64,000 nt of DNA, taken from the NCBI GenBank assembly GCA_021234155.1, contig JAJEKV010000026.1, forward strand, positions 16,482,283-16,546,282. The letters are read 5' to 3'. The position numbers and the translations under genes are program-made. This document shows positions 16,005-60,508 of the stretch, piece after piece. The notes beneath the pieces were generated by a model. It saw nothing but the letters and a program-made list of their open reading frames with translations, made no database searches and was not told where the DNA came from. The stretch is from Isoetes taiwanensis (Eukaryota; Streptophyta; Lycopodiopsida; Isoetales; Isoetaceae). How positions within the stretch are numbered: position 1 is the stretch's first letter; each line of letters starts with the position of its first letter.

Positions 16005-16935
16005 TCACGAGTTTATTATACGCATACACAGTGACTGCAAGAAAAATATGGACAAGCGGAAAACCTTCTAGAATGTGTGTGATCTTATACAGAGGCAGCC
16101 CCAGGAGGAAGAAAGCTTATTAGAACCAGATATTTCCATATCTGCAGCCTAGTGTGAAACTTCTGAGCAAGTCCCACATAGCAATAGAATGATGCATCGT
16201 AGAGTGCAGAAGGGGGAAATTTTGATTTGGCTCCCTTTCACGAGCCTGCACTACCACCAAAAAATGAGTGATTATATACATGCAGCTCTTTAAGAAAAAG
16301 GGAATGGAAGTAAAATGCAGACTTCCAAGAAGATTTAAGCTTGAAGTCAAAAGTTGAATTGGAATTATCTATAGGGTTTGAATATATTGTATAGAGAAAA
16401 TCTTACCTTTAGTTTGTAAAAACAGTTGAAGTAGAAACAAAGGGCAAAATGCTTGAGCTATATTTGTATCAACATGTGTAGCATAGAGTCCGCGAAGAAT
16501 AATCCCAAAGGAGAGGACCGAATCAAAGAACCAAAGCAATGTGTGCTCAACCTACCAACAAAATAGATTGTTGAGCAAATAGCATTCGAAATACCCTAAA
16601 AAAAGCAACATTTTTGAAGCCTTTTCATTTTTTAAGAAGGGCAAAAAAAAAAAAAAGCTTGTTTTGAGGAGAGAGACATTACATTTAAAAACTCATTAAG
16701 TATTTGTTGTTGAAAATAGAAGGAAATATAGTTTTGTGTTTTTGCAAGCTTAATATAAGTACTAAGAAAATCAAACATAGAAAAGAGAAAGAGTCTGAAA
16801 TCATGAATCAAAAAAAGAATTGTTCTAATTAAGCATTGTTGAAGAGACAAAGTTTTCAGTTGAAAAATCTTCATCAAAATATATTGAAATTCTTAGCACA
16901 TAGATTACAATGAAAGATAGTTTAAAATGTCAGTG

Positions 16936-16952
16936 CAGATAAATTTATACTG
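16936..16952. repeat. Isolated iteron, CAGATAAATTTATACTG
   Basis: A single copy of the half-palindromic form lies about 100 bp beyond the stop codon of the minus-strand gene. The same AGATAAATTTATAC form dominates the divergent promoter at 21234-21376. Confidence 0.75.
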
Positions 16953-17680
16953 AGGTGGCTCTTCCCAAATCCACGGGACTCTCTCTCCCCTTAGGATCGG
17001 GCCTCTTGCGAGGTTATAATAGCGTAGACGCCCCTCGATTCCAATGGTACAGTACAGTCAAGCTCTCGCTCGTGCACCACAAAGCTCCAGATCGACGAAC
17101 TCCACCTCCTCATCTCTTCTTCCCGTAAGTGGAGGCTGGATTTCTGTATATGTGCCTTTTACATCGCCAGCACCATTTTTTGCTCCCAGTTCCTCGTTTT
17201 CATCAGGAAAGGATTCACAAGAGCTTATCCTGGTCCTGATGAAACTTATTTTGTCCGGGTCTATGTCGACGGAGACAACATTGCGCCCCTGCTTAAGGGC
17301 TAAACTAACCGGTGCCCGAGCCGGAAAATCGTCTAAGATCCAAATCCCTGTATGAAAACCATCAGATCAAATTATTAATAAGTCATTTGTGGCTTCGATA
17401 ATGGGACACCACAAATTTTGTCCAATGTCTCTTAATTTTGCAAAACCGCCGGAACTGGAAACGCATTGCGGGGAGGAGTCTTCTCATTCGCTGTATTAAA
17501 GTGAACCATGGTTTTTTTGCCCTCATACCAGAAAACCCTATGTGAAAATGCTCGAAACAACTTACTAAGCCGGACCACCACCATGACCCTTAACGTTTGT
17601 TTTAAGCCCCGCCAAACAAAGACAACAATGAAATATTAGTAAAATAAAAACAAGGAAAATAAGTTAGCTCAATAGTGTGG

Positions 17681-17818
17681 CCGGTATAAATTTATACCGG
17701 GGTTGCCTTGTCAGTATAAATTTATACTGGCGTGGCGCAAGTCAGTATAAATTTATACGAACATTGCCTTGCTATATAAATTTAAACCTTAGGGCGGTTG
17801 TGGTATAAATTTATACCG
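17681..17818. repeat. Iteron cluster in the last intron (5 copies)
   Basis: Five TATAAATTTATA-cored units lie in the intron between exon 17859-18274 and exon 17058-17350. The first, CCGGTATAAATTTATACCGG (17681-17700), is a perfect 20-bp palindrome. The others show one or two changes. Confidence 0.9.
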
Positions 17819-18870
17819 TGGAGTTACTAAAAAGAAAAGCGTTAAATGTTAAGCTTACCAAACGCAGTTTTTCAAAGCCCGGCATTACGCATATAGCTCC
17901 CATAGGTTTAAGCACCGACGACCCTCCGGTTAGCGTGATAAGGTGACTTCCTTCGTGCCTTCCAAAAGAGTGGACTTGCACGTCGTGGAAAGCCTCATCG
18001 TCAAAAGCGGCGTCCCTTAATTTTGAAACCATAGGGAATATCTCGCAATGCATAATGTAAAGTTACGCTTCTCCAAAAGTGTCCCCAAATCGTCTGGTCA
18101 CCCTCAACAACTCTGTACATGCAAATTGACCAAACGTTGTAAATCTTTCATAAGAAGTGTCAAAGCTGCTAGTGGCGACCTCCTTTCCCCTGTTCGATTG
18201 CCTTAAGTCTCGCCTCTCTTCCTTGGCCCTCGAACCGTGGTTTAAAAATCCAAATGGAGCCCCTTTTTCTTGTTCTCAGAAGAATATTGTGAGAAAAAGG
18301 CACAAACACGTAACATATTTTTAGCAAAACTTACCCAGCCACTAAAGTTAACAAATAAGCTCTCTAATGATACTATCGATTGGTACAACTTGGGTACGTG
18401 AAGCTTGCACTCCTCCCAAATCCTCTAGGTTTAGCCGCTTCATTAACTTCGGCTGCGGTGACAATGTCTTTCCTCGACCGCAAAGAGAAACATGTTGTAA
18501 GACCAGAAAATGTAGAAGAAACACGGCATTGCAAATGTGGCTTACGTCTTAGCTTCCTTGGCCATTTCGTCTAATGTAAATTCCTTGGCCACGACTTTTT
18601 CCAAAAGGCGAACAAAAATTTCTTTGCTTTTTAGACCCTGTAACTGCGTCCAGGGTACAATGCTCATATTTTTCTGTTTTGATTCTCCACCCTTTTTTGG
18701 TTTTTCACTGCCGGGGGCTTGCTCTTTAAGCTCACCATCTTCGAACATACAAAAAATTCTTTCTTGAAGATCCCACACCTGTAAATGGACAAACGCCATT
18801 AGTTTAGTGTTGCTTAGCGTAAGAGAATATGTTGCACAGTCTACTGTCTAAATGCGCATGGTGTGTAGTC

Positions 18871-19076
18871 ACGGTATAAATTTATACCGTCCCTGGACAC
18901 GGTATAAATTTATACCGCGACTAGGCACGGTATAAATTTATACCGCGTGCCCACCCTGTATAAATTTAAACCGCCCCTAGTCGCGGTATAAATTTATATC
19001 GGGTTATCGTATAAATTTATACCGTGACTAGTCACCGTATAAATTTATAATCGCCACTTGTATAAATTTATACCGC
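18871..19076. repeat. Iteron cluster in intron 3 (8 copies)
   Basis: Eight units spaced by 9-14 bp of GC-rich linker (CCCTGGAC, CGACTAGGC and similar) within the intron 18779-19138. The first, ACGGTATAAATTTATACCGT, is a perfect palindrome. Confidence 0.9.
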
Positions 19077-20110
19077 GCCAAGGCACTTGTAACCACGCTA
19101 AACATACCACAAAACATAGAAAGCGAGCATTTACTTACTTGACCATCTCTCGAATGCCACCTGGTGAAAGTAGTTATCGTGTTGCTTTATTTGCCATAAT
19201 GGGCTTCTTATCGAGTCATAGGCGAGGCAAGACTGTCACACAAAGCTTCTCGAAGCTCCCGCAGGCTTGTTCTTTTGCTTTTTAAAATCCTCTCCATGCA
19301 TTTGTTTAAATTCCACGCACTCACGCATGAAACGGATCTTGTCTATTAAACTCATTTTTAATCAAGTCATTGTCGAGATTATGACTCACGGCAATGACTT
19401 TTGCTTCTTCATCTGTTACACCAACGTATATATGTGCTTCAACGCTCTTCCACACTTCGTTACAGCTTTCCTCTTTTGCTAGTTCTTTTCCTTGCCTTGT
19501 AACTATGTGTGCCTCCAAGAACGTAGTATGTGTAATCTTCAAGTCACCTTCTTGTAATCTTTTAGTTGGTTGCACTGACTCCTCTCCACCATAACAACTA
19601 GTGGCGACACATGGGCATGAGGATTCCTTCTCATTCTTTGTTTCAGTATAGCCACATGTGCCGCATACAGCTTCCGGACCTGTAGCACTCTGACCCCATC
19701 TTCATTTTTAGGTGGCCTCTTAATGGTGCTCAATGTCAAAGAAATAGTTTGCTTTAGCAGTTTAGTGTCATTCACCCGCTTGAGAATAGCACTTGATTTA
19801 GTCAAGGGCTTCACAACAATATCGCTCCGGGAGCCTTCGAAGAGCTTCGTTGACTCCTCTATAGTCAAAGACTTTGTGCCTCTAGATTTCTTTTTTTGTA
19901 GGAGCCCTGTATCTACTACCGGGGAATGCTTCCTACTCTTTCCCTTTGTTACCACTGGTTCCTCTTCCTCTTCTTCTTCTACTTCCTCGTCCTTCTCTTC
20001 AAGCGGAGTGGGGTACCACAGACCTTTGACCAACTTTGTTTCTTCGCAAAGCACCACTGACATCAAAATGTCCACTATATCCTGTAATGCAGGGTTAAGT
20101 TAGGAGGATG

Positions 20111-20129
20111 ACGGTATAAATTTATACGT
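20111..20129. repeat. Single iteron in intron 2
   Basis: One ACGGTATAAATTTATACGT unit sits in the middle of the 70-bp intron 20082-20151, between a GTAAGTATTG donor and a GCATTACAG acceptor. Confidence 0.9.
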
Positions 20130-20740
20130 AAAGACACTAAACAATACTTACATAGCCACTCTTGTAATTGTCAGCCACGTAGTCATGCACGTCTTTGGGT
20201 TTGCACATGCTTATTCGAAGCATTTTACTTTCAAGAACGTAGAAGACTTCCCCCTTGTCATGCATGCACTTCATTAAAAGTTCATCATCGACTTCAGAGT
20301 AAACAAGGTTGACAATTTCGCCGGCAGGGTAATAATCGTCAGACTTGTACTTGCCCTTTCCTGATTGATGACACAAGTAAAGGTACGCCTCAGTGGGTTT
20401 GCTCTCTCTTACCCGTGGACGCATTACCACGCCCTGTCTTTCATTCAGATGTTCAGGCTCTATTGGTGCAGCCTTTGATGACTGGCCCTTTTGTACAAAC
20501 CTGATCTTGGGGCTGGAAAAAGCGTAAAGAAGGCCATTTTTATGCAAGAAACAGAACCTTTTTCGACCTTTTGTAACATAAAAACAGTAAAAATAGAGGC
20601 GAAAAGAGCACAAAATCTACACTAAACTGTCACTTAATTTGTGTTATTTAAGCTTAAAACGCAAGAATATTACTAAAATATGAAGGTTCGCGACACTTCT
20701 TTAAGCACTAGACACCAAGATTCCAAAATGGTTACGGATG

Positions 20741-20971
20741 GGGTATAATTTATACCGCCGAAAGACGAAGCGGTATAAATTTATACCGAACCGCAATACG
20801 CTCGGTATAAATTTATAACGCAGTGCTCGAGCGGTATAAATTTATACCGCTCAAAACTACGGTCGGTATAAATTTATACGCAGGTGCTCGAAATGTATAA
20901 ATTTATACCGCTTCGAGCACCATGTATAAATTTATACCCATCCAGAACCATATCGGTATAAATTTATACCG
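20741..20971. repeat. Iteron cluster in intron 1 (8 copies)
   Basis: Eight units, mostly CGGTATAAATTTATACCG, in the first intron (20513-21035) of the methyltransferase gene, separated by 8-15 bp linkers of unrelated sequence. Confidence 0.9.
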
Positions 20972-21200
20972 GGGGCTTACACTCTAGCGATTTAAAACAA
21001 AAGAGAAACTAGAACAATGCGGGTAGTAGACTTACGTGGCCATGACAAGATAGACGCCACGTATAGACGCTCCGGAGAGCAAATAAGGGGGTATATAAGC
21101 CGCGACCGCGGCATCGACCGAAGCCGCGATATATAGAAAATAGGGGGCCGGCGCCGGGCTTAAGTACCTCTGCTAAGTGCGCCTCATATAGCTTCTCCAT

Positions 21201-21377
21201 AAAGTTTTCAATACAAGTGTCTCGTGAGTTTTCGTGATAAATTTATACCGCTTACGTTTCTATGTTGCCCTCCTCTCAGATAAATTTATACCATCTCTCA
21301 GATAAATTTATACGGTTGTCATTTTAAGTTTTTCTTCCTCAGATAAATTTATACCAACTCAGATAAATTTATACCGT
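21201..21377. promoter_or_regulatory. Divergent promoter with five AGATAAATTTATACC iterons
   Basis: The gap between the minus-strand start codon (21200) and the first plus-strand ATG (21378) is only 177 bp. It contains five half-palindromic units (21234-21250, then four between about 21278 and 21376). They read CAGATAAATTTATACC in one direction, so unlike the intron copies they are asymmetric. The TATAAA or ATAAAT cores could act as TATA boxes, and the repeats could bind an element-encoded protein to coordinate both genes. Both ideas are inference. Confidence 0.7.
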
Positions 21378-24300
21378 ATGGCTCGAGAGAAAAGAACCGC
21401 AGAGCCTCCAACTCCCTGCTCGCGAGCTTCCTCCCCGCAATGGCTTTCACACCTCCTCAACGACACCCGTGAAGTAGCCACGAATATTCTACATCCGACA
21501 TTCCAACACCCAGCTCTGTTGAGTTTACTCCAGCAAGACCACCTCGGCTTCCACCACCAGTTCAATTTACTCCACCACACCCTGCTCCTGAACGTCGTTT
21601 GCCCCCACCAATGCGTTTTACTCCACCACAGGCTAGAGAGCTCAGACTACCTACTCCAGTTCATTTTAGTACGTCGCCCATAGTCCACCGTAGGCTCCCT
21701 CCACGGAGGCAAATCACACCAACTCCATCCATTTCGCTAAATGGTACTACAACAAGTGGGAGCAGTCAGCGACACGCAACTCCTGTGTTCTACGACACTT
21801 CAGGAGCTGGTCAACTACGTCACCAGCCTCGATTACTTTTTCCCAGAGAGAGGGAAAGCACCTCCCCCCAGGACTTGCCCACATCAAACCTCTCAGCATC
21901 TACAAGTACACCTCATGTTGATCTCTCAGACGAAGAAACACCTCATGTTGATGTCTCAGACGAGGACCTACCAAAGCCACAAGACTCCATGTTCGAATTC
22001 AAAGCCCCTGCAAGTAAAAATCTTAAGCGTAACTTACACAAGAGAGCATGTACAACCGTTAGAAGAAAGAAACTCATGGACGAGGCTCACTTGCGGGCAA
22101 CACATACAAAGCACTGTTGTTCTCAACGTTGTTTGCTTAAGATTGGACTAAAGGAATTGAGGTTGCTTCGTGATAGTTACAGTTCAATGACTCGCTAGAC
22201 CAAAGGGGCTACTTAGCCTTCAATATTAGGCGGATGATGGTGAGAAGTTTACTTACACAAATGGTGGCCACACACCGTCGGCGTCAACGGCCTTCAAATT
22301 GATTCATGCTTTAGGCAGCAGACGACTTGACCGCCTGAAGAAAAGGCTTGACAAGAATCCAGGCATCAATGACTACTGCCATTCAGGAGGCATAACCAGA
22401 ATTCATGCCCTTCAATGTGTTTCCTGGATGGAAGGTTTCTTTAAGGAGTCTTGTGAGAAACTCCCTAACAGCCCTATGTACCACTTGAGTGACAATTTCA
22501 CGAAACAAGAAGTCTACGATAATTATAAGGAGATGTGTGTTGAGGCCGGAGAACGCTTTGTTCCGCTACTCTTACTTTACGTGCTCTGAAAAAAGAGTTT
22601 TCTCGTGTCCATTCCTAGAAAGCATAGGATGTCTGTTTGTGCTACATGCTCAATTAAAAGCTCGAGACAAAATGCAAGGACACTTCACACTAAAAGTAAG
22701 CTTCCAGGACGTGTTCTTGCCTAGTTCTACTTAAAAGTAGGTTCTTTCCTAAACATATTTTCATTTCAGATGCATTGAAGGAGAAACTGAACAAGCACAG
22801 AGAACAACAATCTTTGGAAAGGAGAAAATTGACAAAACATAGGAAGAAAGCACTGAACAACCACTCAACTACATATCGGTTGTTATTGATGGAATGGACC
22901 GAAGAAGACCACCCTACCACATTTTGTCAATGTGCCTAAGGATGCTGCTGAAGAAGATTTCATACATCTGCATGTTGTTGGTGCTATGGTATTTAATGGA
23001 AAACTATCTTGCAAGGCATTTTTGAATTATCCAAACATTCATGCTGATCCAAATCTCACTATCACAATATTGAATAAGCTTCTTTCCAATCTAGAACATA
23101 TACCACCGGTTCTGTATCTTCAGCTAGACAACACGACAAGGGAAAATAAGAATCAGGCGTTGTTTGCTTACTGTGCTATGCTAGTAGAGAAACAAATCTT
23201 CAAGAAGGTGAAGATTGGTTTCCTGCTTGTTGGTCATACACACGATCAAATTGATCAGATGTTCAAGAGGGTTCTCTAAACGTCTTGCTTTCGAAAAAAA
23301 AAGCTCTCGACCTACCAAGAATGATTGAGGTTATCCAAGATTCCTACAATCCTCTCGTCCGCACATCGAAGTTATTGGAAGAAACTTATGATTTCAAAGA
23401 ATGGATTTTTCGGAGAGATCAACTGGGTCACTGTGCTATTGAGCCCTTGAGAAACATTACATTTCAGCATCAGATCAAAATTTCACTTGTAGATGGCAAG
23501 GCCATCTTACAAGGAAAGAAATATGCCACATCCTTGCGGTGGCGACCCGGCAGTATTCAATTCATTCGCACCATCCCCAATACTAGTTCCATGCTCTCTG
23601 CAGAGCAAATGCCTCTAAAAAGCTTGAAAGAAATCACAAAGAGTAAAAAGGAGGGAAGAGCATTTGACTCAAACAAATCATTGGATTGCATTGAGACAAG
23701 TATTCAGTCGTGCTCTAACCACTTTGGGGAGGCAGATGCTTTATGGTGGCCTCAGTTTTTTTCTCGGCAACGTGACATGTTGCAAGCTTCATTACAAGGT
23801 CGAAGACCAGTTACATTCAACTGGCCATCTAGGCAAACTCTCCCTGTGCAAGTCGAGAATCAAGAGGAACATGTAGAGATATTGGCTAGCTCAGATGAAG
23901 ATGACAGAGTCATGTACACTGGCCCTAGACGCACGGCACAACAAGTTGCTCGAGTCTCTGGTTCAGTCTCAGAGATTCAGAAAGGAATGCTCATAGCTGT
24001 CCCAGCTGATAATGATGAATCTGGGAAGCCATTCTGGCTAGCTAAAGTACTGGAGGTAACAAGAGAGGATGGAATTCCCACTCAATTAAAAGTGCACTGG
24101 ATGAGAACAAATGCTGCCAATGCTTTCAGTGGGAGTTATACTTTGGAGATGGTAAAAACAGGAGTGGGAAAGAGAGCAAAGTCCAAAGCAAGCACTGCTG
24201 TCATAGATCTAGCTGAAGTAAAGGTTCTTGCATATGACTTTGTTCTGGTCACTCAAACTTTAATAAGGTCGGCATGTGGATTAGACAAACAACCTAGAAA

Positions 24301-24460
24301 GGTGGCAAAAAAAGATGATGATGAAGACTCACTTGTAGACAGTGAGGAAGAAGATCGTTCGAGTACATCCAGTGCTGAGAGTGAAGCTGAGGATGAAGGC
24401 TCAAGTGATCAGGGATTAAATGAGTCGGAGGATGAGATGCATCCCCGATCTTGCTTTTAA
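21378..24460 (+). pseudogene. Transposase-like gene of element A (DUF7869-type, DDE-like)
   Basis: The N-terminus is proline-rich with repeated FTPP (21490-21700), then an acidic LSDEETPHVDVSDED part and a Cys cluster, HTKHCCSQRCL (about 22105-22140). A helical region (22290-22590) has RIHALQCVSWMEGFF and YHLSDNFTKQEVY. The core has VVIDGMD (22879-22899), LYLQLDN with ENKN (23118-23153) and GHTHDQIDQMF (23232-23264), a DDE/RNase H-like arrangement I associate with DUF7869 proteins of seed-free plants and invertebrates. The end (23285-24460) has a QKGMLIAVPADN...FWLAKVLEV segment and an acidic Ser/Glu tail. A small intron at 22696-22769 (GTAAGC...TTTCAG) is likely. An in-frame TGA near 21470, a shift right after IDGMD and two changes around 23275-23305 (one in an A run) break the frame. 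Start uncertain: ATG 21378 or 21440. Confidence 0.6.
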
Positions 24461-24895
24461 GCAAATGTAAGTTTGTCCGATGACTTCGAACATGTAAAGA
24501 ACAGAAAGTGCAGGTGATGAGTGTTTGTCAAAATGTCCTATATTTTTGACAATTTTGTTCATAATTTTGTACAATTTTCACAACCTTGAATATATCACTT
24601 CTTTGTCACTCTACTACCCTTGCTATTTTTTTTATTGCTCCTTTTTTGCTACACTTTATAAAAGTAACTATTTTTTGTTCTAGTTTAGGAGGATGAAAAT
24701 TGCTATTTAAAATTTTTGCACGAAAGTTATGTTCAATCAACCCCTCAAAAATGGTACCTAAATTACTTAAATTGTCACACCTGTCACAAAAAAATCTTAA
24801 AAATGGACTTTTTTAAGGGAATTTTAGGGAATCTTTCAAAGATTCCTTCTGAAGTGCGTTTCCAGCAAATAAGTGCGTTTCATTTTAAACTTTGT
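24461..24895. other. 3' flank of element A, nothing recognised
   Basis: AT-rich sequence with no iterons, no terminal inverted repeat that I can match to the left side, and no gene. It ends exactly where the truncated LTR starts. Confidence 0.4.
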
Positions 24896-25098
24896 TATGA
24901 GATAAACCTGAGTACATCTGAAGAGGCTCCGGTCTAATATAGTGTAGACCGCAAATCTGAGCCATACATCTAACTAAATCTAATCCCTACACTTATGTTG
25001 ACCTAATCATGCCAAGTGTCAGTCTGCCACCACTGACACCTAACATGTGCATGCACCTAACATGTGCATGCACAATGTTAACCACTAGGTGGTTAACA
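24896..25098 (-). mobile_element. Truncated LTR of the 12.3-15.1 kb family
   Basis: Matches the last 200 bp of the LTR and is followed by the same GTCAC...TGTGTGGGCGAGG flank, so it derives from the same insertion locus by duplication and not from a new insertion. No internal region is attached. Confidence 0.85.
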
Positions 25099-38972: not shown

Positions 38973-41900
38973 CTCCCCCTCAAGATCGACTCTGTCATAA
39001 TTGCTTACAACAGTACATGAACATAAATCAAACTGCTCTCTTGACAGTAACAAAAAGGATGAGACAAAGCAGAAAAAGAATGTTTTCCATGACGATGCCA
39101 CTACTACATCAAATTTGCACTTCCCTCACGCTGGCCATTCCCATTTCTTCAATACATTCCATATGCCTCCTTTTTGGCAAAGGTTTCGTGAGCACATCAG
39201 CAGTCATGAGATGTGTTCTAAGGTGCTTGATGACAATTTTATTCAATATGCTTGGCCTTTGTAAAGTTGCTGGGGTTCTTTACAAGGTTAACTGCTGCTC
39301 GATTGTCATTGTAAATCACTGTAGGCTTTCTTTGATCCACTCCCAGATCTTTCAGCAACCTCCTGAGCCATATAGCCTCTTTGGCTGCTGCACATATAGC
39401 CATGTACTCAGATTCACATGTGCTGACAGTCGTTGCCTTTTGCTTTTTGCTTGACCAGCTGATCACTCCCCCTGTCAACTTAAAGCAAAAGCCTATTCGA
39501 GACTTCCGTAAAGATGTGTCCCCTGCATAGTCGGCATCTACAAAACCTTGTAGCACAGGAAACTGACCAGCTGTTCCATGATAAGTGAGCCCATAATGGG
39601 GAGTGCCTTTAAGGTATCGCAAGATGCATTTGACTGCCTGCCAGTGTGGTGCCTGCCAGTGTGGAGCAGCTGGCTTTTCCATAAATTGAGAGACAGTGAT
39701 TACACTTTCTGATATATCCGGGCGACTGCAGACCATAAGGTGCATGAGTGATCCAACAACACTTCGATAAGAGAGAGGTATCTTATGATCGAAAGGCATA
39801 CATGGGTCTGAACTTGTGTCAGAAGCAAATTGGGTAGAAACAGCAGGTGTACTTACCTCTTTGCAAGCGTGCATTTGGCATTTGTGAAGAAGAGATTCAA
39901 CTCCTTTTGCTTGGTGGACTGTCACAGTTCGATCAGTGAGGTTTCGAAGAATCTGCATCCCAAGGAAATATTTCAAGGCTCCAAGGTCCGTCATTTGGAA
40001 CCTGCTGTTCAAAGCCTGCTTAGTTTGTGCCATTAAAGCAGAAGAGTTAGATGCCAAAATGAGGTCATCAACATACAAGACAACCAGAATGCATCTGTTT
40101 CCAGCATGCTTCACATAAACATTCCAATCAGCCTCACTTCTAGAGAACTCTTGGGCAGTGAAGAAAGAGTGAATGGTTTTATACCAAAGGCGAGGGGATT
40201 GTCTGAGCCCATAAATAGCCTTGCGTAACTTGCATACTTTATTTTCTTGCCCACGAGGTGCATATCCAGGTGGCTGCTTAATGTACACTTCCTCATCTAT
40301 CTTACCATGGAGGAATGCGGACTTGACATCCATCTGTTGGAGGTCAAAGTCATATGCTGCTGCTATGGCCAGAACTGCTCTCACAGATGTTAAGCGTGCC
40401 ACTGGTGCAAATGTTTCTTGATAGTCCACCCCTGCCCGTTGGGAACACCCTCGAGCTACGAGCCGTGCTTTGTACCTGTCAATATTGCCATTCTCATCAT
40501 ATTTCACTTTGTACAGCCACTTGGTGGTAATCGCCTTTTTGTTTGGTGGCAGATCGACAAGCTCCCAGGTTTCATTGTGCAGCAGGGAGTTAAACTCCTC
40601 ATCCATTGCTTGTTTCCAAAACTTGCTTTCTGGACTGTGCATAGCTGATTGATACGTGGGTGGTTCCTCAATGGAAGCATTACAATGCATGGCAATGAAA
40701 GCTGATCCGCGTGCTCTCCTGCTGCTCATGTACTCCACCATCTTTTCAGTAGGTTTCGAGGTCCTTGAGGATCTGCGAAGCACCGGCTCTTCACAATCAT
40801 TATCACTGCATACTCCTTCTGACTCAGGCTCGGAAGGGAGATCATCTTCCTCAAGGGGAATATCTCTTGGTGATTCCTCTACCTCTGATTCGGAGTCACT
40901 TGAAGTTTCATGTTCTTGTTCTGTGGCTGTGATAAGAGGATCATACTTCAGGGGTTTCTGATTCTTACCAATGCTGAAGTCTAGCTCATTGAAGGATACA
41001 CTCCGTCTCACAATCATTTTCTTGGTTGCAGGTACATATAGTTTGTATCCTTTCACATGTTCCCCATAGCCGACAAACATACAAGGTGTTGCCCTATTCC
41101 CAAACTTGCCGGACTTCCGTTCTGCTTTAGATAGATGCACATATGCTGTGCACCCAAATATTTTCATGCCCGAGACATCCGGCTTCCTTTTGGTCCATGC
41201 TTCCTCTGGCACAGTTTGTGGCACAGCCTTGGTGGGTACTCTGTTAATGATGTACACAGCAGTATGCACTGCTTCAGCCCAAAATTTAGGTTCTATGCCC
41301 TTAGAAAGGATCATAGACCTAGCACATTCCAGCACAGTCCGGTTTTTCCTCTCCACAACGCCATTCTGTTGATGCTCATGAGCCACTGAGGTCTCGTGGA
41401 TAATACCGAGCTTCTTTAAGAATTCATCAAATTCACCACTGTTAAATTCTCCTCCCTAATCACTTCGGATAGTCTTCACCTTTTTTTCTATGAAGTTCTC
41501 TGCCATGGCTTTCCATTGCTTAAACTTCTCGAACACTTCTGACTTATGAGCTAAGAAATAAACCCAATTTTTCCGAGTATAATCATCTATGATCAATAGA
41601 AAGTACCTGGATCCACCTAGAGATTTTATCCAAGCAGCTCCCCATACATCCATGTGGACCAGTTCCAGTGGCTGACTTGCCCTTGCTCCCTTCTGATTGT
41701 GATATGATCTCCTGCTCAGCTTGGCCAGCGCACATCCTTCGCATATTCCTGGGGGAGCTTTGACTTTGGGTAGCCCTTTCACAAAATTCTGGACCTGCAT
41801 CCTTTTGAGGAACTGGAAGTTGGCATGACCAAGGCGTTCATGCCAAGTTTGACTGGGATCTGTGCTGCTGGTGTTTAGAGCTGTAGATGGTTCTCTGCAC

Positions 41901-43447
41901 CAGCTGATTCTATAAAGACTTCCCATTCTTTCTCCTTGTGCCACCATGACACATTTTTTATTTCGAATTATACACCTTCCTCCTCCAAATGTGATGTATA
42001 ATTGAGCATCATCCATTTTTGAAATTGAGAGCAGATTGGCTTCCAAGTCTGGCACATACAACGTATTTTTCAGCAGGACCTTCCCTGTGGCTAGTTTTAA
42101 CATCACAGTTCCCGTGCCTTTTACACTTAAAAGGCCTTTGCCTATTTTTACTTTCCATTGTCCTGTTTCTTCTTTAAACTCCTGGAATAATTCCTGTTTT
42201 GGCGTCATGTGATCACTGGCCCCAGAGTCCAGGAGCCATATCCCTTGGGCAGTTTCTGCCATGAGAGCCACTGCCTCAATTCCACATGAATTATTCCATG
42301 CATCATCTTCTTTTGGCTGACCGAGAATGGTCTTTATAGCATCTGCAATTTTCGCAAACATGCTGATGATACTGCTGACTATCCAAAGGGTTATCATCAT
42401 GATATTGCTTTGGTTTCTCTCCAGCTTACACGTTACGAATGCCCCTGCTACAGACACAAGCGAATCACTGCTGGAGCTTCGATCAGAGTTATCAGTCTCA
42501 CTTGCCTTGGAAGCTTTATGAGCATGGCCTCTTTTCTTCTTCATTTCATCTTTGTCAGCAACCACCTGTTTCTTCTTTCTTTTAGCATCATTTCTCTTGT
42601 TGGGTTCAGGGCAGTCCCTTGCAATATGCCCATGTTTGTTGCAATTGTAGCATTTACGGGTCTCAACATTCTCTTGTCTTCCAACAAGTGCGTGCCCTTC
42701 AACTTGTCCTCCTCGCTTGGCTCCTGCCTGATTGATCTCCTCCATTAAGATCTGCTGGCATGCCCATTCCAACTCCACATGTTCAACAGATCCGATCAAA
42801 TTCTTTACGTTATTGAAGGTTGCCGGCAATCCCAGGAGTAGCACCAACAATCAGGTCATCTTCAAGCCCCTTTTCCATTCCTTTGAGTTGGAGTGCAGCT
42901 GCCTTGATTCTGGAAATGTATTCTTCTGCTGATTGGCAGCCCTTTAGCTTTGTGGTAAAAATCACAGAGTACAAGTTAGCTTGCTGGGAAAAGTGTCTCT
43001 TCTTGTAAATCCTAGAGAGCTGTTCCCAAGCATCTTGGGCACTTTCAGCCGCCTCCACTTGTGCAATCATGGTATCATCCAGATACCGCATCATCCGATT
43101 CCTTGCCTCCCAGTCACGTTGCATCCATTTGAGGAAGGCTTGTCTGTCTTCTACAGATGTACCAGACTCCTGTTTGCCTTCTCCCTTAACAACCTGAGCT
43201 GCTGTGAGTCCTGAGGGCTTGCTGAGCACTGGCCTTGGCTCATCACCGGATACTACATGCCATAGTCCCTTCTCAGAAAGCTTTCCACGTACCTTGATAA
43301 ACCAGTAAAAGGCATTATCATGGGAAAGTTTCTGTATTTTTTCCATTTCGTTCTTGTGCAGCGCAGCTCCTTACCCGAATGGATCTGCCCGCTCTGATAC
43401 CATAATAGTACACAACGAAATAGAGACTCTAAAAGCATAATCTTAGA

Positions 43448-46689: not shown

Positions 46690-47720
46690 CAGAAGCATCC
46701 GTCTATGCATAAGAAGAACACCGTAAATACGTCTGCCAAATTATCTCTTTTTTATCATCAGCTAGAGATGAACAACGATAAGCTTTAGTGATCTTCTACT
46801 GAGCACAATGAAGCAGCAGCTGATCAGAGATGTGTGCACCTTGGAAAATACACAAACGTCGCCTCTGCCAGATAGACCACAAAATCCAACTAGAAGCAAG
46901 ATGGAATGCCTGCTTACGCAAGTTCGGCCAAACAGGGGGATAAAGTGCAAGTAGGATCTCTTGGCTAGTGAGAGACACACTGAAAAGAGTGAACAACCAC
47001 GCCCAAGCAAGCCGTAAATGACCGCACAAGAAGAAGCAGTGTTCAATAGTTTTAACACGTTGTCCACAGAGAGGGCAACGATCTGAGACTCTAGGATTCA
47101 TTTTGTGAACCAAGACATTCACTCGAACACATCTATGGAGAATTTGCCATCGCAACACTGACACTTTAGGGTTATCCCATGTCCACATCCAAACACTTTT
47201 CCACTGTGGTTGAGGAACCTGAAGATGCCAGTGCTGGGATGGGGGGAGAGGCTCACAATCCAAAAGCAGCCTGTACGTGGAAGAAACAAACTTTTCTGGC
47301 TTAACACGTGCATCACATATCCAAATAGGCACATCAACCTGTGATTGCTGCACAATGATGGCAAAAAATCAGCCACCCAGCCCAGATTTGCCGATCCCAT
47401 CTGTATAACAGAAATCTCGTCTGAAGAGCCTCCCATGACAACAGATGACCAGAATTATACCAAGATGTAATCGTTAAAACCCCAGCTAGCCGCCAACGCC
47501 ACTGGGTCTTTGGGTGTACAAGTGCACATAAAGGCTGCTGATCATGCGTATCTTGCAAGGGAAGCCACCAGCATGACATTGATAATGAAGCACAAGCTTG
47601 GGGATTACCATGGAACAAAGATCTAACCGCATCCCAGGAAGCAAGCAGCGCTTTAAGGAATGGGGAAGCATTTGGATATGGATGCAGAGGGTACAACAAG
47701 GTCCATGGGAGACTAGGCTT
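46690..47720 (-). mobile_element. LINE ORF2 C-terminal fragment with zf-RVT domain
   Basis: Read on the minus strand this encodes the reverse transcriptase zinc-binding domain typical of plant L1 elements: VSVLRWQILHRCVRVNVLVH, then DRCPLCGQRVKTIEHCFFLC and SWILWSIWQRR. The Cys-X2-Cys...His...Cys spacing matches zf-RVT. The preceding part (47334-47699) continues in shifted frames with LSWEALQTRF. It is a different, more conventional LINE family from the one at 7.7, 15.4, 25.4 and 49.7 kb, whose C-terminus reads RLCQCCQ. Confidence 0.8.
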
Positions 47721-51755: not shown

Positions 51756-54505
51756 ATGAGCGAGCTTTCAGATGATGGCAATAGCGACTACTGGCAGGAT
51801 TCATCTGACCAATCAGATGCCGATAGCTCTACATCGTCCATTGCCACAAGTGCTAGTCGTGGCCCCGGTGGTTCCAATGTCGTGCAGGAGGTGGTTCAGA
51901 TGTATCCCGATTGGTGCAACTGGCTTAGGCAGGAACGGGCCCGAGGAGTTCGTGTCCATGGGTATGTGTTCTTGAAAGAGACATATGATCTTATGATTGC
52001 TTCCGTCAACGAGGGTAGGCCTCCGTATCCTTGCGACATCAGGATCGCAGACCCAGATTTTCCTCCCCTTCCACAGAGACCAGACAAGCATGTTGTTTCC
52101 GAGTGGCATAGATATGAGGGACGGTGGGAGCAATACCGTGAGGGGCTATACGTGGGCGTCGTCGGTCATGTTTCCTATTTGCATAAGGTGGGGTCGCATC
52201 CACATAAGTGTGTGCCTTGGGTGGAGGATTGGAACAATGTAGTGGCGCAGTGCCACATTGCCAATGGCCAGCACTTGTCGAAGACGCAGACCCTGGCAGA
52301 AATAAGATCACGGTGGGAGACAGGCATAGCGAGGCATGGGATCCCGCTGGAATACCTGACCCAGTGCCTGCGGGTTTGCAAGGTTCGCATGTACATGAAG
52401 GATAGTGACTTCCCTCAACATGAGACTAGCACTGTCAGCCAGATTGACATCAGAGTGGGAGAGGTGCAGGTGCGAGACCGCGTCCGTCTTGTGCACATCC
52501 ACACGCGCATCAGGGCCGGGGGTGGCGGTCGGCAGATGAGGGTGGACGATTTTGCCTGCCACCGGTGGAGGAACCCCAGGCGCAGGCCCACAACTTCTGG
52601 CAGGCAGGTGCGGAGGAGTCACAGACGTGGCTGCACATATAGGCTTCGCACAGTACGGCCGAATGGTCATGCGGAGGACAATGCGCGGACCTGGATATTT
52701 GCGCGGCCTGTGCATTCTGGGCACGATCCTTTCGAAGCGCCAGAGGTATGGTCTCTACCAGTTCACCCTAATCTGATAGAAAGAGCTGTGCAGTTAATGA
52801 GAAACGTGAACAGCACAAAGGCTGTGTGGGACATGGCGAAGGCAGTGGGTCCCATGCTCAGGGAGGAGACCACCGCAGTCGAGCGCGTCACATATCGGTT
52901 TGACATGAGCCAGGAGGATGTGTGGCGTCTCTGCAACAAGTATCGAATGTTTGGTGAGCGAATGTCATGTCTAATTATGCTTGTAAATGTCTGCGCACTC
53001 ACTTGCCTTGGCTCGAACGTGACTATGTTTCAGGCGGTGGCGCAATGGCCGACTGGGACAGCCTTAAGGAGAACATAGAGGCCTGGGCACATGCAGGAAA
53101 GGTCCTCTACCACCAGCCATTCGCGTCTCACACTGCGGATCCGGAACGCCGCCCATGGATCCTAGTTCTACTGGGATGACAAGATCGTGGGGCGGCGATA
53201 CAAGATCTGTAAAACTTCGGGGGTGGGTCTAGATTCGACATTCGGCACCAACATGTGGCGGATACCACTTTATTCTGCCGTGGTTCCAGTTGCATGCGGG
53301 GTTGGGTATCCAGTCTTCTACATGTTGTGTACACATAAGAAGGGTCGCAGCAGACAAAGAATGCATTCTGGCAAGCTTACACCGGGTTTTGAACGGATGG
53401 GGCATGTAAGGCCAAGGTCCATCACCATTGACATGGACGCCGGAGAGGAGAGTGGCCATAGAAGAGGCAGTTGCCAACGACCCATACTGTTTCAACGAGC
53501 ACGGCGAGCAGGTAAAGAACTTTGCTTGTCACTATTTGCGTTTTCTTAGATGTAACGCCCGTACAGATAGCAGGCTGTGTCATATCTTGTTGGTTCCATT
53601 GCAAGCGAGCATGGCGTGACAACCTCATGCCGAGGATACATGACCCCGCTCATACGCCAAGATGTCCGGCAAGGCTTTCTAATCTCATCTTTGGAGCCCG
53701 GCACGGAGCCGGTATGAGCACTTGGAAAATCACCTCTACAATGCCTATAGTAACAGTCCCGAGATCTTCGAGTAAGTGTCTTTGTCGAGCTTTTGACTAG
53801 AAATATCGTTTTGTAGCTGACGTGCAGCAATACACCTGGCACCCCCAGCTATCTTGCCCTGGCCGGTTGTGGGAGGCGCAGGGAAGGGAAATGGCAACCG
53901 AGACCGTGAGGTTGTGGCCCCATGCATACATGGACACTACCAACTACGTGGAGGCCCATTGGAGGGTGTTAAAGGTGCAGACTTTGGGTTGCAAGGTTAA
54001 CCTGCGGATGTACACTCTAATTTGTTCGCTAGTAGGATATCCAACTGGTGAGGAGCCCCCAGGAGGGACAATTTTGACGCGGTGCAGGGAGCGTTGGAGC
54101 CTAGGTATGTCCCTAGCAAAGCACATCCTTAAGAATGATCCTCCATTCTAATCACGTTCCCTTCCCTTTGCTTCACCGACTTTGGCCTGGTGATACCACG
54201 ATCCTATCGCAAAACGACAAAGTCGCGCAAGATCTGCCCAGAAACGGTTTGAAGGAGATGCAAGCACTATCACGCAGGTGGACGACGAGGCCATTGAACT
54301 GCCCATCGATCCGGGCGATGATGGGGTCCGCTATACGGTTTTGATGATGCAACACTATTGCACTTGTCTCTCGGCGATGTCCCAAAGGTGCAAGCACCTC
54401 ATAGCGGGAGATATGTTTCTCTCTAGGTACCGCCCCCACCTCTTCGGTGCTATATCCCGCATCGAAGCGGAGGTCCAGCCCATCGAAGCGGCCACCAGAC
54501 CGTAG
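51756..54505 (+). pseudogene. MULE transposase with SWIM zinc finger
   Basis: Starts MSELSDDGNSDYWQDSSDQS, a Ser/Asp-rich N-terminus. A DNA-binding-like region follows (PDWCNWLRQERARGVRVHGY, then AVQLMRNVNSTKAVWDMAKA). After a likely intron (GGTGAGCG...TTTCAG, about 52953-53032) comes the MULE core: VGLDSTFGTNMWRIPLYSAV with the first catalytic Asp (about 53224-53280), GVGYPVFYMLCT and RSITIDMD with the second. A TTNYVEAHWRVLK segment (53934-53975) and a SWIM finger, YCTCLS...RCKHLIAGD (54358-54412), close the protein. Frame changes interrupt the second third (52560-52750), the region after the second Asp and the C-terminus, some of which may be unrecognised introns. The transposase would bind element ends and cut DNA in the nucleus. 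Confidence 0.65.
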
Positions 54506-56450
54506 TGGACGGCGACACGCTGAGATTGGTGGTTAGTCGCTGCGGTGCAATGGGCGGGAAATGCAATACCGGGCGGGCGGAGGTAATGAACCAAGAACAC
54601 ATAGACGAGGAAGACGTGGCTCCATTGCTTGCGGAGGTGCGACGTCGCCTAAGGGCGTTCCGTGATGCGGCGGCACCGAGAAACGTCCCATTGCGAGGGG
54701 GCTATATGCAGCTCAGCAGGCGGGAGCACGTGTGCGTAACTTCTCAACGCCATCGTCGTGGCCTGCCTGGGTAACGCTGAAACCCCGCCGCAGCCACGTG
54801 GGAGGAGAGGGTCGACCTCGCGTCGCCTCAGATTTGACTGATCACTCGGATTTGCAATGTTTGTAGTGTTTGGCAATGCATTTAAATCAGAAATAACATT
54901 TAAATCAATTCATTTAGCCCATGCATTTAAATCAATGACAATGTTTCTATTGCAGAGTAGAAAGTACATAGATACAGACATGGGCAAACACAGAAAGTAA
55001 ATGTCTAGGGGCCGGCACGCCTCATTATTTGGTAGTTGAACCAATATGCCTTCGCGTACAGGCAAGCAATGAGTGTAAAGAAGTTCCGCCGGAGCCGTGC
55101 CACATCTTCGTTGGTATGCATGTTCAGGCGTACCTGCAAGGTGGAAGGTACAGGATGTCATGGGGAGCATATATAACTGAAAAATGAGGTGGTGGGGAAG
55201 GATAGTGTCGAACCTGCAAGTCTATGTCTGTCTCTGGCCATAGGAAAGCCTGCATGACATGCCGGATGTTTAGACAGACATGGGCACCACAAGACCAATA
55301 CTGGTTCTGTGCTGGGACCGGGGCCAGCCGCAGCTCCAACCGGTTTCTGAAACGCTCGTGCCAGTGGTCCGGGGCATGAGTGTGGTACAGCCACGGCTCC
55401 AATACCCTGTCCCAAACACGGTAAGGACTTGATGCACGCATTCAAGACAACCAAAAGTAAGAAAGTCAGCAGGCAAACAACTCACATTTGTACATCCGCG
55501 GGTTGCCCCGGTATGGCCCACCCTGCCAGGCAGGGAATCCATGCACCAAAAGCCCTCGAAACGCCTGGGCCACTCGAGTCGCCCCCGTACTACAGGGTCT
55601 GCAATATGCACCAAAAGGTACCAGTGTCCCCTGCAACCAGCTCACACTGCATGAGTACCTATGGAGACACGAGAGGGGATGGGGACTATGCCACGTACCC
55701 ATGACAGATGGGCCAAATGATAGCTCGCAAGCTCTCCCATCGTATCTGGTACATTGGGAGCAGGTCCGCGCCCATGACCTCGTGATCTTCGAATCAGCGA
55801 GGGTCCACCATTGCAAATGTGGATCTCTCATCATCGTTCGAATCGATGCATGCGTGCACCGCTTTGCGTCGCGTCGGATGTGTGAAGGTTTACAACACAT
55901 GAATGAAATCGTGGTAGGACACGTACCTGATAATTACCCTGACATGATCTGCCTCCCACTCTTCACTGATTCGCAACGATTGCCTTCTATCTGCTCTCGC
56001 ATCCAACGCCGCAAGGAAGCTGGCCCCAGCAAGTATAGAGGGTGCACCACCCCCGTATGCCTGGCGATCTTTGACACGGCGTCGTCCTCAGCACGCCTTG
56101 GCGGGGTAATCCTATCTTGTCAAAGTACATGCATGGAGCCACGCATACGGACGGTCGTCCTCGTCAAAGCACGCTTTGTCTGCGCCGCCCGCGGATGCAT
56201 TAAACTTGCCGCGCTCTCTTTGCTGTCTGGGCCGCGGGTTCATTGGCTCCCTCTCCTCATCTGTGAGAGGGGATGGCTGCGACGGGTCATTCCCGGGACG
56301 ACCACGTTCCCTCGCTGGCCACCACATATCTCTGTGATATGCATTATGGTGCCCAATGGCACCATCCTTCGTCAGACCTGCCCACAGACGATTCACCCGT
56401 AGCTTGTTCGCTGTATGGGGACACCCGGGTGCGTCACAGTACCAGTAAGT
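53525..56450. repeat. Tandem duplication unit 1 inside element B
   Basis: Runs from TGCTTGTCACTATTTGCG to CACAGTACCAGTAAG and is repeated at once at 56451-59355. The unit contains the 3' half of the transposase gene and, on the other strand, the ULP1 gene without its first exon. The junction CCAGTAAG/TGCTTGTC is seen only here. The right copy continues instead into the native first intron and exon of the protease gene. Confidence 0.85.
55005..56445 (-). pseudogene. Zinc-finger/ULP1-like cysteine protease, copy a (lacks first exon)
   Basis: From the 5' side: a finger-like exon YWYCDAPGCPHTANK with GHHNAYHRD (about 56340-56445; C-X4-C...H-X3-H), a charged stretch, then QIRWESLRAIIWPICHG (about 55690-55760). 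The C48 peptidase signature is distributed over the next exons: GHWYLLVHIADP with the catalytic His (about 55585-55632), WCMDSLPG with the Asp, and AQNQYWSCGAHVCLNIRHVM with the Gln and Cys (about 55248-55310). The end is LRRNFFTLIACLYAKAYWFN, and the stop is at 55005-55007. Such proteases cut SUMO/ubiquitin-like proteins in eukaryotes. Their role in MULEs is unknown. The triad is readable here, but the first exon was lost by the tandem duplication. Confidence 0.65.
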
Positions 56451-59355: not shown

Positions 59356-59672
59356 AGTGGCCAAACTATGTGTGCCACGGGCTGTTTGGGGGCCCAGGCG
59401 CCTGACAATCAGCCATATGCCTCGATATTCCCTGTCAAACTTCCATAATCAGCGCCTAGGCTAGCCTACCAACCATACAAGTACAAATGAAAAAACTCTA
59501 AAGACACAAATGCAAACCATCTAATGGGGGTCTGACGGTACTTACTAAAAAGTGATGTACCCAACCATGCCCGGCTGTCCGCGGTCGACGTAATTCGGGA
59601 GCCCACTCTCGTCCATCCCTATCGGGCGACTCTCCTGCGTAAGATCTCTGCCCCATCGGTCACCTGTCGCCA
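57938..59672 (-). pseudogene. Zinc-finger/ULP1-like cysteine protease, copy b (with native first exon)
   Basis: The first exon (about 59549-59672) encodes MATGDRWGRDLTQESRPIGM and ends GYITF with a GTAAGTACC donor. After a CACACATAG acceptor (about 59372) the next exon joins in phase to give YLATYWYCDAPGCPHTANK, the zinc-finger-like exon. The catalytic exons are colinear with copy a, but the histidine region reads GDLWYLLVHIADP where copy a has GHWYLLVHIADP, and the Cys region keeps YWSCGAHV in a shifted frame. The stop is at 57938-57940. This is the original gene end of the element, since only this copy has the first exon. Confidence 0.65.
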
Positions 59673-60508
59673 TATTGTAATGCCTGCTTGGGGAATATGC
59701 CTAGTAACCATAATGTATAGATAAAATGAGTTTAGAATTGATTACTGCAACCATAAAGATAACAATCACAATATTATATGGCAAATAAAGAAACAAACAA
59801 ATACAAACAAATGTCGCTTCTAAAATCTTGTGGTAGAACATAATTGTTACATCTCCACATCTGAGATTAATGGACATGTTCAAGTTCATACGGCAGCATT
59901 GTTTCTCCATATGTGGCATCCTATTTGGCAGAAAACTTGCCTAGGGGAATAAAACTAAAATCACACAACTATGCAACAGGATTGCCTAAACGTCGATCTA
60001 GGATGGCTTGGTTAACACGGTTGCAAATTAAACGGGAGTGTTGCAGCACTCCCGTTTCAAAGATTCCCTTTAAAAAAATAGCATGCTCTTAAAATTGGCC
60101 TTTTTTGGATAAACTTGAGAATTTTAAAAGGTTCAGTTTTTTTTTTCCCTCATTTTGGCTCCTCATTAAGTGGCAAGTTTGTTTTGTGCAAAGAAACATC
60201 TTGAAAATGGCAAAATGTAGACATGAATACATAATCTCTAAAAGTGAGATATCAAGAACTTCAAAATAGAGAAGAAAAAATAATAATTATTTCTTTAAAT
60301 TTTTTTAGTACATCAATTTGGCACCCTTTAATTGGTGCGTATTGAACAATACGCTTGTCAGACGTTGCAACTGGGTATCTGTCCCAAGTTTCCACATTTA
60401 GTTGTTCCATCAAACATGTTCCACGTTCTATTGGCGGAATAAAAAACAAAAAAAATAATCAAGTAAATAAATGAACACTAGGACACATAAAACAAAAAAT
60501 GTAAAAAC
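59673..60508. other. Right flank of element B; hairpin and an exon-like frame
   Basis: AT-rich. An 11-bp inverted repeat with a 6-nt loop (AAACGGGAGTG...CACTCCCGTTT) lies at 60030-60057. On the minus strand 60261-60429 encodes a protein-like RGTCLMEQLNVETWDRYPVA and KRIVQYAPIKGCQIDVLKKF after a CCGCCAATAG acceptor-like site. It is not assigned to a family. Confidence 0.4.

What the first reader, a model, noticed from the sequence alone, without database searches (positions are those of the whole stretch)
16571..24899. A ParB-like/DNA-methyltransferase gene paired head-to-head with a transposase-like gene
Seen: two divergent genes 177 bp apart. One ends in DNA amino-methyltransferase motifs (DIPYG, FSGSGTG, GRNVVSVDIDP). 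The other has IDGMD, LDN-ENKN and GHTHDQIDQ motifs. Known: ParB N-domain plus N6/N4-methyltransferase fusions are common in phages and bacterial mobile elements, and DNA methyltransferases have been reported in some eukaryotic transposons. Inference: element A is a eukaryotic transposon family that captured a prokaryotic modification module, perhaps to mark its own DNA or ends. This is my best candidate for an undescribed system.
Basis: partly seen in the sequence, partly recalled or inferred. Interest (0 to 1): 0.9.

Follow-up and report, generated by a model that had tools for sequence, protein, structure and literature searches.

The report
Decayed transposon with self-tagging methyltransferase
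A broken plant-like mobile element appears to have carried a bacterial-type DNA-methylating enzyme beside its transposase-like gene, and its introns and shared promoter are packed with copies of one short palindrome that may be the address label by which the enzyme recognised its own DNA.

Summary
Observation partly confirmed. Two divergent genes lie here, both broken by frame changes and stops. The + gene contains Pfam DUF7869 (single ORF, 5.8e-39); 'transposase' is inferred from motif order and a low-confidence model. The - gene ends in class-beta amino-methyltransferase motifs (DIPY, FSGSGT, GRNVVSVDID); the set occurs once in six frames, 0 times in 300 shuffles. PADLOC methyltransferase models reach 4.9e-7 on a hand read-through but only 0.034 on the unmended ORF. 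The ParB-like part is plausible by eye, not significant. The pairing is already in print: Ectocarpus Sola1-1, with green and red algal cases cited (PMC12477816, passages). What I find new is 28 copies of the palindrome GGTATAAATTTATACC or near forms (up to 4 mismatches) at 16936-21375 and none elsewhere in the window: in introns of the methyltransferase gene, the divergent promoter and the 3' flank; 0 of 27 tested lie in hand-set exons. I infer that they are the element's own recognition sites, a design like VANC/VANDAL anti-silencing. No relative of either gene was found in the searches run, so neighbourhood in other copies is untested.

The parts
   Evidence: best flank inverted-repeat pair scores 31, p = 0.03 of 1000 shuffles; in wider flanks 31 against a 200-shuffle 95th percentile of 30 and maximum of 34
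17058..21200 (-). broken ParB-like plus amino-methyltransferase gene, multi-exon
   Evidence: frames, GTAAG donors; exon limits set by hand
19236..19710 (-). ParB-like region (LGGTHSYKAR ... YVGVTDEEAKVIAVSHN), split over three frames
   Evidence: register matches ParB-methyltransferase fusions but score 15.3 is below the shuffle 95th percentile of 16.7; no ParB hit in Pfam
18031..18042 (-). catalytic motif IV, DIPY
17311..17328 (-). SAM-binding motif I, FSGSGT (frame differs from both sides)
17259..17288 (-). GRNVVSVDID, continuation of the SAM-binding region
   Evidence: unmended ORF 17061-17366 hits two PADLOC MTase_II models at 0.034 and 0.059; the other 7 single-frame ORFs sent hit nothing
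21380..24460 (+). broken transposase-like gene
22938..23530 (+). DUF7869 domain over two ORFs (LDN, GHTHDQIDQ; IDGMD just upstream)
   Evidence: 5.8e-39 and 0.0028 in two ORFs; 2.8e-48 read through
23939..24310 (+). C-terminal beta-rich domain, perhaps a histone-mark reader; weak
   Evidence: AlphaFold pLDDT 59; no Foldseek hit at E <= 0.001, best 2eko pseudo chromo domain 0.11
21234..21375 (.). 5 palindrome sites in the divergent promoter, four of them CTCAGATAAATTTATAC
20741..20970 (.). 7 palindrome sites plus one with a 1-base deletion, in intron 1
   Evidence: donor 21035, acceptor 20513
20113..20128 (.). 1 palindrome site in a short intron
   Evidence: donor 20151, acceptor by eye
18873..19074 (.). 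8 palindrome sites in an intron
   Evidence: donor 19138, acceptor 18779
17683..17817 (.). 5 palindrome sites in an inferred intron
   Evidence: donor 17858, acceptor not certain, so this placement is the weakest
16936..16951 (.). 1 palindrome site downstream of the methyltransferase stop
16589..16625 (+). candidate left terminal inverted repeat (marginal)
24790..24824 (-). candidate right terminal inverted repeat (marginal)

Best explanation
This is a decayed copy of a two-gene DNA transposon of a plant-like genome. One gene makes a DUF7869 protein, which I take to be the transposase. The divergent gene makes a ParB-like/amino-methyltransferase accessory protein of prokaryotic type. I propose that the accessory protein binds the palindrome arrays in its own introns, the shared promoter and the 3' flank, and methylates the element there (probably N6-adenine, because the first residue of motif IV is D). 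That would mark the element as self, and either keep its promoter open against host silencing or regulate the two genes. Shown: the DUF7869 domain, the methyltransferase motif set, the palindrome arrays and their confinement, within this window, to this element, the decay. Inferred: the transposase role, the ParB role, most intron limits, binding of the palindromes, the chemistry, the anti-silencing outcome.
For: DUF7869 5.8e-39. Motif set unique in the window, 0 in 300 shuffles. Read-through methyltransferase: 19 of 20 listed PADLOC families are methyltransferases, best 4.9e-7; hhalign against 166 ParB-methyltransferase fusions 86%, score 45.8 against a maximum of 27.2 in 100 shuffles of the joined protein. 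Unmended ORF: only two PADLOC hits at E <= 1, the two best models, in the same register. Palindrome: 20 matches at <=2 mismatches of 16 against a mean of 0.02 in 100 shuffles; 28 sites at <=4 mismatches inside the span and 0 outside it; 0 of 27 in hand-set exons, which cover 5569 of 8329 bases; spacers agree at 22% on average over 210 pairs, about random. Precedent for the gene pair: PMC12477816 passages. Precedent for self-site arrays in introns, intergenic and terminal non-coding regions: VANC21, PMC5735166 passages.
Against: Only one copy, and it is broken. Frame-blind scans with the prokaryotic fusion profile do not single out the region (1st, 3rd, 3rd, 5th, 6th and 8th best of 32 tiles over six settings), so the strong profile scores depend on frames joined by hand. 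ParB is not significant. No terminal repeats beyond p = 0.03 and no established target-site duplication. Nothing links the palindrome to the methyltransferase except location. Exon limits were set by hand, and the 3' limit of the intron holding 5 sites was set with the array in view, so '0 of 27 in exons' is partly circular for that cluster. Tandem Repeats Finder sees 20-61-base periods in the arrays, so part of them spread by duplication.
Confidence: 0.42

Rival explanations
1. Transposon with methyltransferase accessory as above, but the palindromes are bound by the DUF7869 protein, as subterminal repeats are bound by TnpA of En/Spm (recalled), and the methyltransferase acts elsewhere.
For: Within the window the arrays are confined to the element; the promoter has 5 sites.
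Against: At up to 4 mismatches no site lies in the outer 365 bases of the left end or from 21376 to 24899 on the right; 21 of 27 sites are in inferred introns of the other gene, not near the ends.
Confidence: 0.2
2. The palindromes are an AT-rich minisatellite or doubled TATA boxes (TATAAA reads on both strands) with no protein partner coded by the element; the methyltransferase is plain cargo.
For: Repeat periods of 20-61 bases found by TRF; five sites lie in the divergent promoter.
Against: The core ATAAATTTA is the same in 27 of 27 sites (chosen at up to 2 mismatches of 14) while spacers match at 22%; no half-decayed sites at 5 mismatches occur inside the span; six separate non-coding places carry sites, inferred introns among them.
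Confidence: 0.23
3. Not one element: a decayed DUF7869 gene and an unrelated decayed methyltransferase gene that lie side by side by chance.
For: Ends not established and no second copy in the window.
Against: Head-to-head layout about 180 bp apart; the same palindrome sits in the shared promoter and in the introns of the - gene; the published pairing of a ParB-methyltransferase gene opposite a transposase (PMC12477816).
Confidence: 0.1
4. The - gene is not a methyltransferase; the motifs are chance in a decayed reading frame.
For: Pfam below cut-off; frame-blind scans not decisive; motif I is out of frame in the present copy.
Against: 0 of 300 shuffles hold the motif set; the unmended ORF still hits two MTase_II models and nothing else at E <= 1.
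Confidence: 0.05

Closest known systems
Sola1-1_Ec32 of Ectocarpus (PMC12477816, passages read), with green and red algal cases it cites (Iyer 2011, Petroll 2025; neither held)
   Same: ParB-like plus N4/N6-methyltransferase gene on the strand opposite the transposase of a eukaryotic DNA transposon; the paper already suggests binding and modifying its own sequence
   Different: Transposase family (Sola-1 there, DUF7869 here), element size (21.5 kb there, about 8 kb here), host group; no palindrome array was mentioned in the passages I read
VANC/VANDAL21 anti-silencing system of Arabidopsis (PMC5735166, passages read)
   Same: An element-coded protein recognises a short motif repeated in introns, intergenic and terminal non-coding parts of its own element
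   Different: VANC causes loss of methylation, and no methyltransferase domain was mentioned in the passages I read; its motif YAGTATTAY is not palindromic; the proteins were not compared
Phage and bacterial ParB-methyltransferase fusions (e.g. L002 of Faecalibacterium phage FP_Lagaffe)
   Same: ParB-type region before a class-beta amino-methyltransferase, same motif order
   Different: No transposase partner or palindrome array was looked for there; sequence similarity to the window is very weak
Bdelloid rotifer N4CMT (PMC8885841, passages read)
   Same: Permuted bacterial-type amino-methyltransferase working in a eukaryote
   Different: Not described as a transposon gene in the passages read; SPPY motif (N4C) against DIPY here
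Fungal TET/JBP-bearing transposons, KDZ and others (PMC12730594, passages read)
   Same: Transposon carries its own DNA-modification enzyme
   Different: A TET/JBP dioxygenase acts on methyl marks rather than adding them; transposase families differ

Membership tests
class-beta DNA amino-methyltransferase (N6_N4_Mtase) | motif IV (D/N/S-x-P-Y/F/W) before motif I (FxGxG[ST]) | tested here: met
   DIPY 714 nt before FSGSGT, GRNVVSVDID after; 0 of 300 shuffles
class-beta DNA amino-methyltransferase (N6_N4_Mtase) | Pfam PF01555 above its curated cut-off | tested here: not met
   16.6 bits against 26.7, on a hand read-through
class-beta DNA amino-methyltransferase (N6_N4_Mtase) | profile similarity to known methyltransferases without mending frames | tested here: inconclusive
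   1 of 8 single-frame ORFs hits, two MTase_II models at 0.034 and 0.059; frame-blind scans not decisive
class-beta DNA amino-methyltransferase (N6_N4_Mtase) | canonical DPPY (N6A) or SPPY (N4C) tetrad | tested here: inconclusive
   DIPY: D as in N6A enzymes (PMC8885841 passages), second residue altered; copy is decayed
ParB N-terminal domain | Pfam ParB_N (PF02195) or another ParB profile match | tested here: not met
   no ParB family at E <= 10 in Pfam or NCBIfam (earlier version of the read-through)
ParB N-terminal domain | G-x-H/R-R..A box and D.EA....N box (recalled) in register before a methyltransferase | tested here: inconclusive
   GGTHSYKA and TDEEAKVIAVSHN align in register with the fusions, score 15.3 against shuffle 95th percentile 16.7; with the 12 phage proteins alone E 0.049, best of 10 shuffles 0.15
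DUF7869 | Pfam PF25273 above cut-off | tested here: met
   134.1 bits in one ORF, cut-off 26
DNA transposon (any superfamily) | terminal inverted repeats | tested here: inconclusive
   best pair p = 0.03
DNA transposon (any superfamily) | target-site duplication and multiple copies | not testable with these tools
   no own genome, no second copy in the window
DNA transposon (any superfamily) | RNase-H-like DDE/D transposase fold | tested here: inconclusive
   strand-helix order fits, pLDDT 50; top PDB match RuvC E = 0.039, none at 0.001
KDZ transposons | KDZ transposase domain | tested here: inconclusive
   the read-through matched only DUF7869 and a weak DUF5039 at E <= 10; that this Pfam copy holds a KDZ model is recalled, not checked
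VANC-type anti-silencing | short motif arrays in introns and intergenic parts of the coding element only | tested here: met
   within this window only and with hand-set introns; comparison text
VANC-type anti-silencing | VANC protein homology and loss of methylation | not tested
   no VANC sequence compared, no methylation data

The most novel reading that the evidence does not exclude
The ParB-like/methyltransferase protein and the 18-bp palindrome (CGGTATAAATTTATACCG) form an enzyme-plus-address system: a parS-like site array kept in the element's introns and divergent promoter recruits an adenine methyltransferase that writes a prokaryotic mark on eukaryotic transposon DNA, an anti-silencing or self-recognition device that works by adding a base mark rather than removing one.
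Probability: 0.3. Interest if true: 0.88.

Novelty: new variant of a known kind. Interest (0 to 1): 0.57.

Why it matters
Transposon-borne ParB-methyltransferases have been noted in algae with self-marking only a suggestion. This window gives a concrete candidate for what such a protein would recognise: a palindrome repeated 28 times, by all signs in non-coding parts only. That turns a vague proposal into a binding and methylation test, and hints that plant-type genomes hosted a base-modification strategy for escaping silencing that differs from VANC demethylation and fungal TET transposons.

Tried and rejected
Relatives: DUF7869 ORF in viral contigs (2 stretches matched a pattern, none confirmed) and phages (none); read-through methyltransferase in phages (3 records, only the motif I region matched, best 0.02) and genome contigs (115 stretches, none confirmed). 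Degenerate DNA patterns for the ParB-like box, the GHTH box and two adjacent palindromes in viral contigs: 0, 2 and 0 stretches; I judge the 2 to be reverse-strand chance matches in phage-like contigs. PF25273 in the FP_Lagaffe record and 14 control genomes: nothing rang, which does not show absence. hmmsearch of six-frame fragments with the fusion profile: two of the 25 rows printed lie in the region in the right order, but with scores 1.5 and 0.1, below the best scores of 20 shuffled windows (2.0 to 7.9). Frame-shift-tolerant profile scan: not decisive. PHROGs: methyltransferase families at 0.29 and 0.44; ParB part, three families of unknown function at 0.18-0.21. Read-through against Pfam also gave RNA-methyltransferase models at 0.027 and 0.28 and against NCBIfam Trm5b at 0.0047, all sharing the SAM-binding motif only. 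PDB sequences: CcrM 0.11 with both motifs in order; ParB part nothing useful. Rfam and tRNA scans of the window: 0. Pfam IgA0_D2 hit to the ParB-like read-through (0.0022, below cut-off) was set aside as chance. A possible 8-base flank match AGCAAATA on both sides of the candidate span, seen by eye, is set aside: about one such match is expected by chance in flanks this long (my estimate).

Papers: DUF7869 occurs in 0 held papers. ParB, methyltransferase and transposon together were searched (163 papers, 20 listed; 7, 6 listed; 3; 23, 20 listed; 4; 127, 8 listed), adenine or N4 methyltransferases with transposons (210, 20 listed), and palindromes with transposon-encoded DNA binding (6). Of the papers listed I read passages of five (PMC12477816, PMC12730594, PMC5735166, PMC8885841, PMC12695648); only PMC12477816 reported the pairing. 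Unlisted papers were not seen.
Full report
What is there. The region 16571-24899 holds two divergent coding regions whose starts, set by eye, lie about 180 bp apart. No own genome is held. Long ORFs of a Ty1/copia retrotransposon at 39242-43370 and a zf-RVT LINE-type fragment at 46799-47368 show a eukaryotic genome; that zf-RVT is mainly a plant LINE feature is recalled, so 'plant-like' is an inference.

The + gene. ORF 22890-23279 matches Pfam DUF7869 at 5.8e-39 (134.1 bits, cut-off 26), and the next ORF carries the rest of the domain at 0.0028; read through, 2.8e-48 over profile positions 2-191 of 192. The motifs IDGMD, LDN..ENKN and GHTHDQIDQ fall where I would expect the acidic residues of an RNase-H-type transposase. 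An AlphaFold model of the ORF without relatives is poor (pLDDT 50.4) but gives the order strand, strand, helix, strand, helix, strand, helix; the IDGMD strand is in another frame and not in the model. Its best PDB match is RuvC at E = 0.039; 5 of the 50 rows shown are RuvC-type resolvases, the other 45 are other kinds of protein, and nothing reaches 0.001. So 'transposase' is a motivated inference, not a result. No paper held mentions DUF7869.

The - gene. Three methyltransferase motifs lie in the order of a class-beta amino-methyltransferase. A search of all six frames of the window with general definitions found one F.G[ST]G[TS], with GRNVVSVDID 40 nt after and DIPY 714 nt before; 300 shuffles gave no pair and no triple. 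The definitions were set after seeing the motifs. With frames joined by hand, PADLOC lists 20 families, 19 of them methyltransferases, best 4.9e-7; NCBIfam CcrM 0.0008 but 18.4 bits against a cut-off of 830; Pfam N6_N4_Mtase 0.0078, below cut-off; and hhalign against 12 phage proteins and 154 of 160 fetched bacterial or viral-contig fusions gives 86%, score 45.8 against a maximum of 27.2 in 100 shuffles of the joined protein. These numbers are flattered by the joining: frame-blind scans do not single out the region (1st to 8th best of 32 tiles over six settings). The fair unmended test is ORF 17061-17366, which hits two PADLOC models at E <= 1, the two best in the same register, at 0.034 and 0.059; the other seven single-frame ORFs of the gene that I sent hit none. 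I put the methyltransferase at about 90 to 95%. Motif IV starts with D; in the passages of PMC8885841 that I read, DPPY marks bacterial N6A and SPPY most N4C enzymes, so adenine is the better guess.

The ParB-like part. Read over three frames, 19236-19710 shows LGGTHSYKARKEL and YVGVTDEEAKVIAVSHN, which fall in register with the ParB part of the fusions, but the score (15.3) lies under the 95th percentile of 100 shuffles (16.7). With the 12 phage proteins alone it gave E 0.049, the best of 10 shuffles 0.15. No ParB model hits in Pfam. It stays a likely but unproven call. ParB-methyltransferase fusions are common in phages: 272 records match one at 1e-20, 256 over at least 80% of its length.

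Decay. Both genes need several frame changes to be read, while the copia element of the same window keeps ORFs of 738 and 464 aa, so poor assembly is an unlikely cause. I take this copy to be inactive. No other copy lies in the window.

The palindromes. GGTATAAATTTATACC and close forms occur 20 times at up to 2 mismatches of 16 bases, mean 0.02 in 100 shuffles. Counting the 14-base inner form at up to 2 mismatches there are 27, and with the 1-base-deletion form at 20741, 28 at up to 4 mismatches of 16. Outside the span there are none at up to 4 (19 at 5 mismatches), and inside there are none at 5, so the set is cleanly two-sided and not an artefact of the threshold. Placement of the 27: 7, 1, 8 and 5 in four inferred introns of the - gene, 5 in the divergent promoter, 1 in its 3' flank; none in hand-set exons, which make up 5569 of 8329 bases. 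Donors GTAAG at 21035, 20151, 19138 and 17858 bound those introns on the 5' side and pyrimidine-rich acceptors at 20513 and 18779 two of them on the 3' side. The acceptor of the intron that starts at 20151 is by eye, and that of the last intron is not certain and was set with the array in view, so its 5 sites are weak evidence for the rule. The core ATAAATTTA and the second base after it (A) are the same in 27 of 27 sites, while spacers agree at 22% over 210 pairs. TRF reports periods of 20 to 61 bases over the arrays, so sites multiplied in part by tandem duplication, with the core held and the spacers free. Arrays with cores kept and spacers lost are what binding sites look like. Since the copy looks dead, the preservation speaks for constraint before it died, not after.

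How it most likely works. By location the arrays mark the - gene's own introns and the shared promoter. The closest studied design is VANC21: the protein sits in introns, intergenic and terminal non-coding regions of its own element through a short repeated motif (PMC5735166, passages). Here the partner would be a ParB-like/methyltransferase protein, and ParB proteins bind palindromic sites (recalled). The step that joins protein and palindrome is inference. An anti-silencing role, auto-regulation, and marking for transposition are all open.

Known or new. The pair itself is known: Sola1-1_Ec32 of Ectocarpus has a 1104-aa protein with ParB-like and N4/N6-methyltransferase domains opposite its transposase, and its authors cite green and red algal cases and suggest self-binding and self-modification (PMC12477816, passages, parts 2 and 3 of its reference list). 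The two cited sources, Iyer 2011 and Petroll 2025, are not held. New here, as far as the capped listings of searches can tell, are the DUF7869 partner and the palindrome arrays. I therefore file it as a new variant of a known kind.

Noticed in passing
window 23939-24310 (+): Beta-rich C-terminal domain of the DUF7869 protein; a low-confidence model (pLDDT 59). Of 50 weak PDB rows shown, 13 are chromo, Tudor, BAH or similar chromatin proteins (best 0.11) and 22 are norovirus-type proteases, so a chromatin-reader role is only a hint.
   Followed up: partly
window 39242-43370 (-): Ty1/copia retrotransposon with long ORFs (gag, zinc knuckle, integrase, RVT_2) in three neighbouring ORFs; LTRs not looked for.
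   Followed up: no
window 46799-47368 (-): zf-RVT match (2.6e-10), a LINE-type fragment.
   Followed up: no
window 52001-60000: Block of 51-54% G+C in a window otherwise at 35-45%; two ORFs in or at its edge, 468 and 313 aa, have no Pfam match: perhaps another inserted element.
   Followed up: no
window 25037-25073: Perfect 17-base direct repeat (2.2 copies) just beyond the candidate span.
   Followed up: no
L002:1426-2763 (Faecalibacterium phage FP_Lagaffe): ParB-methyltransferase fusion; such fusions match in 272 phage records, 256 over at least 80% of the query.
   Followed up: partly
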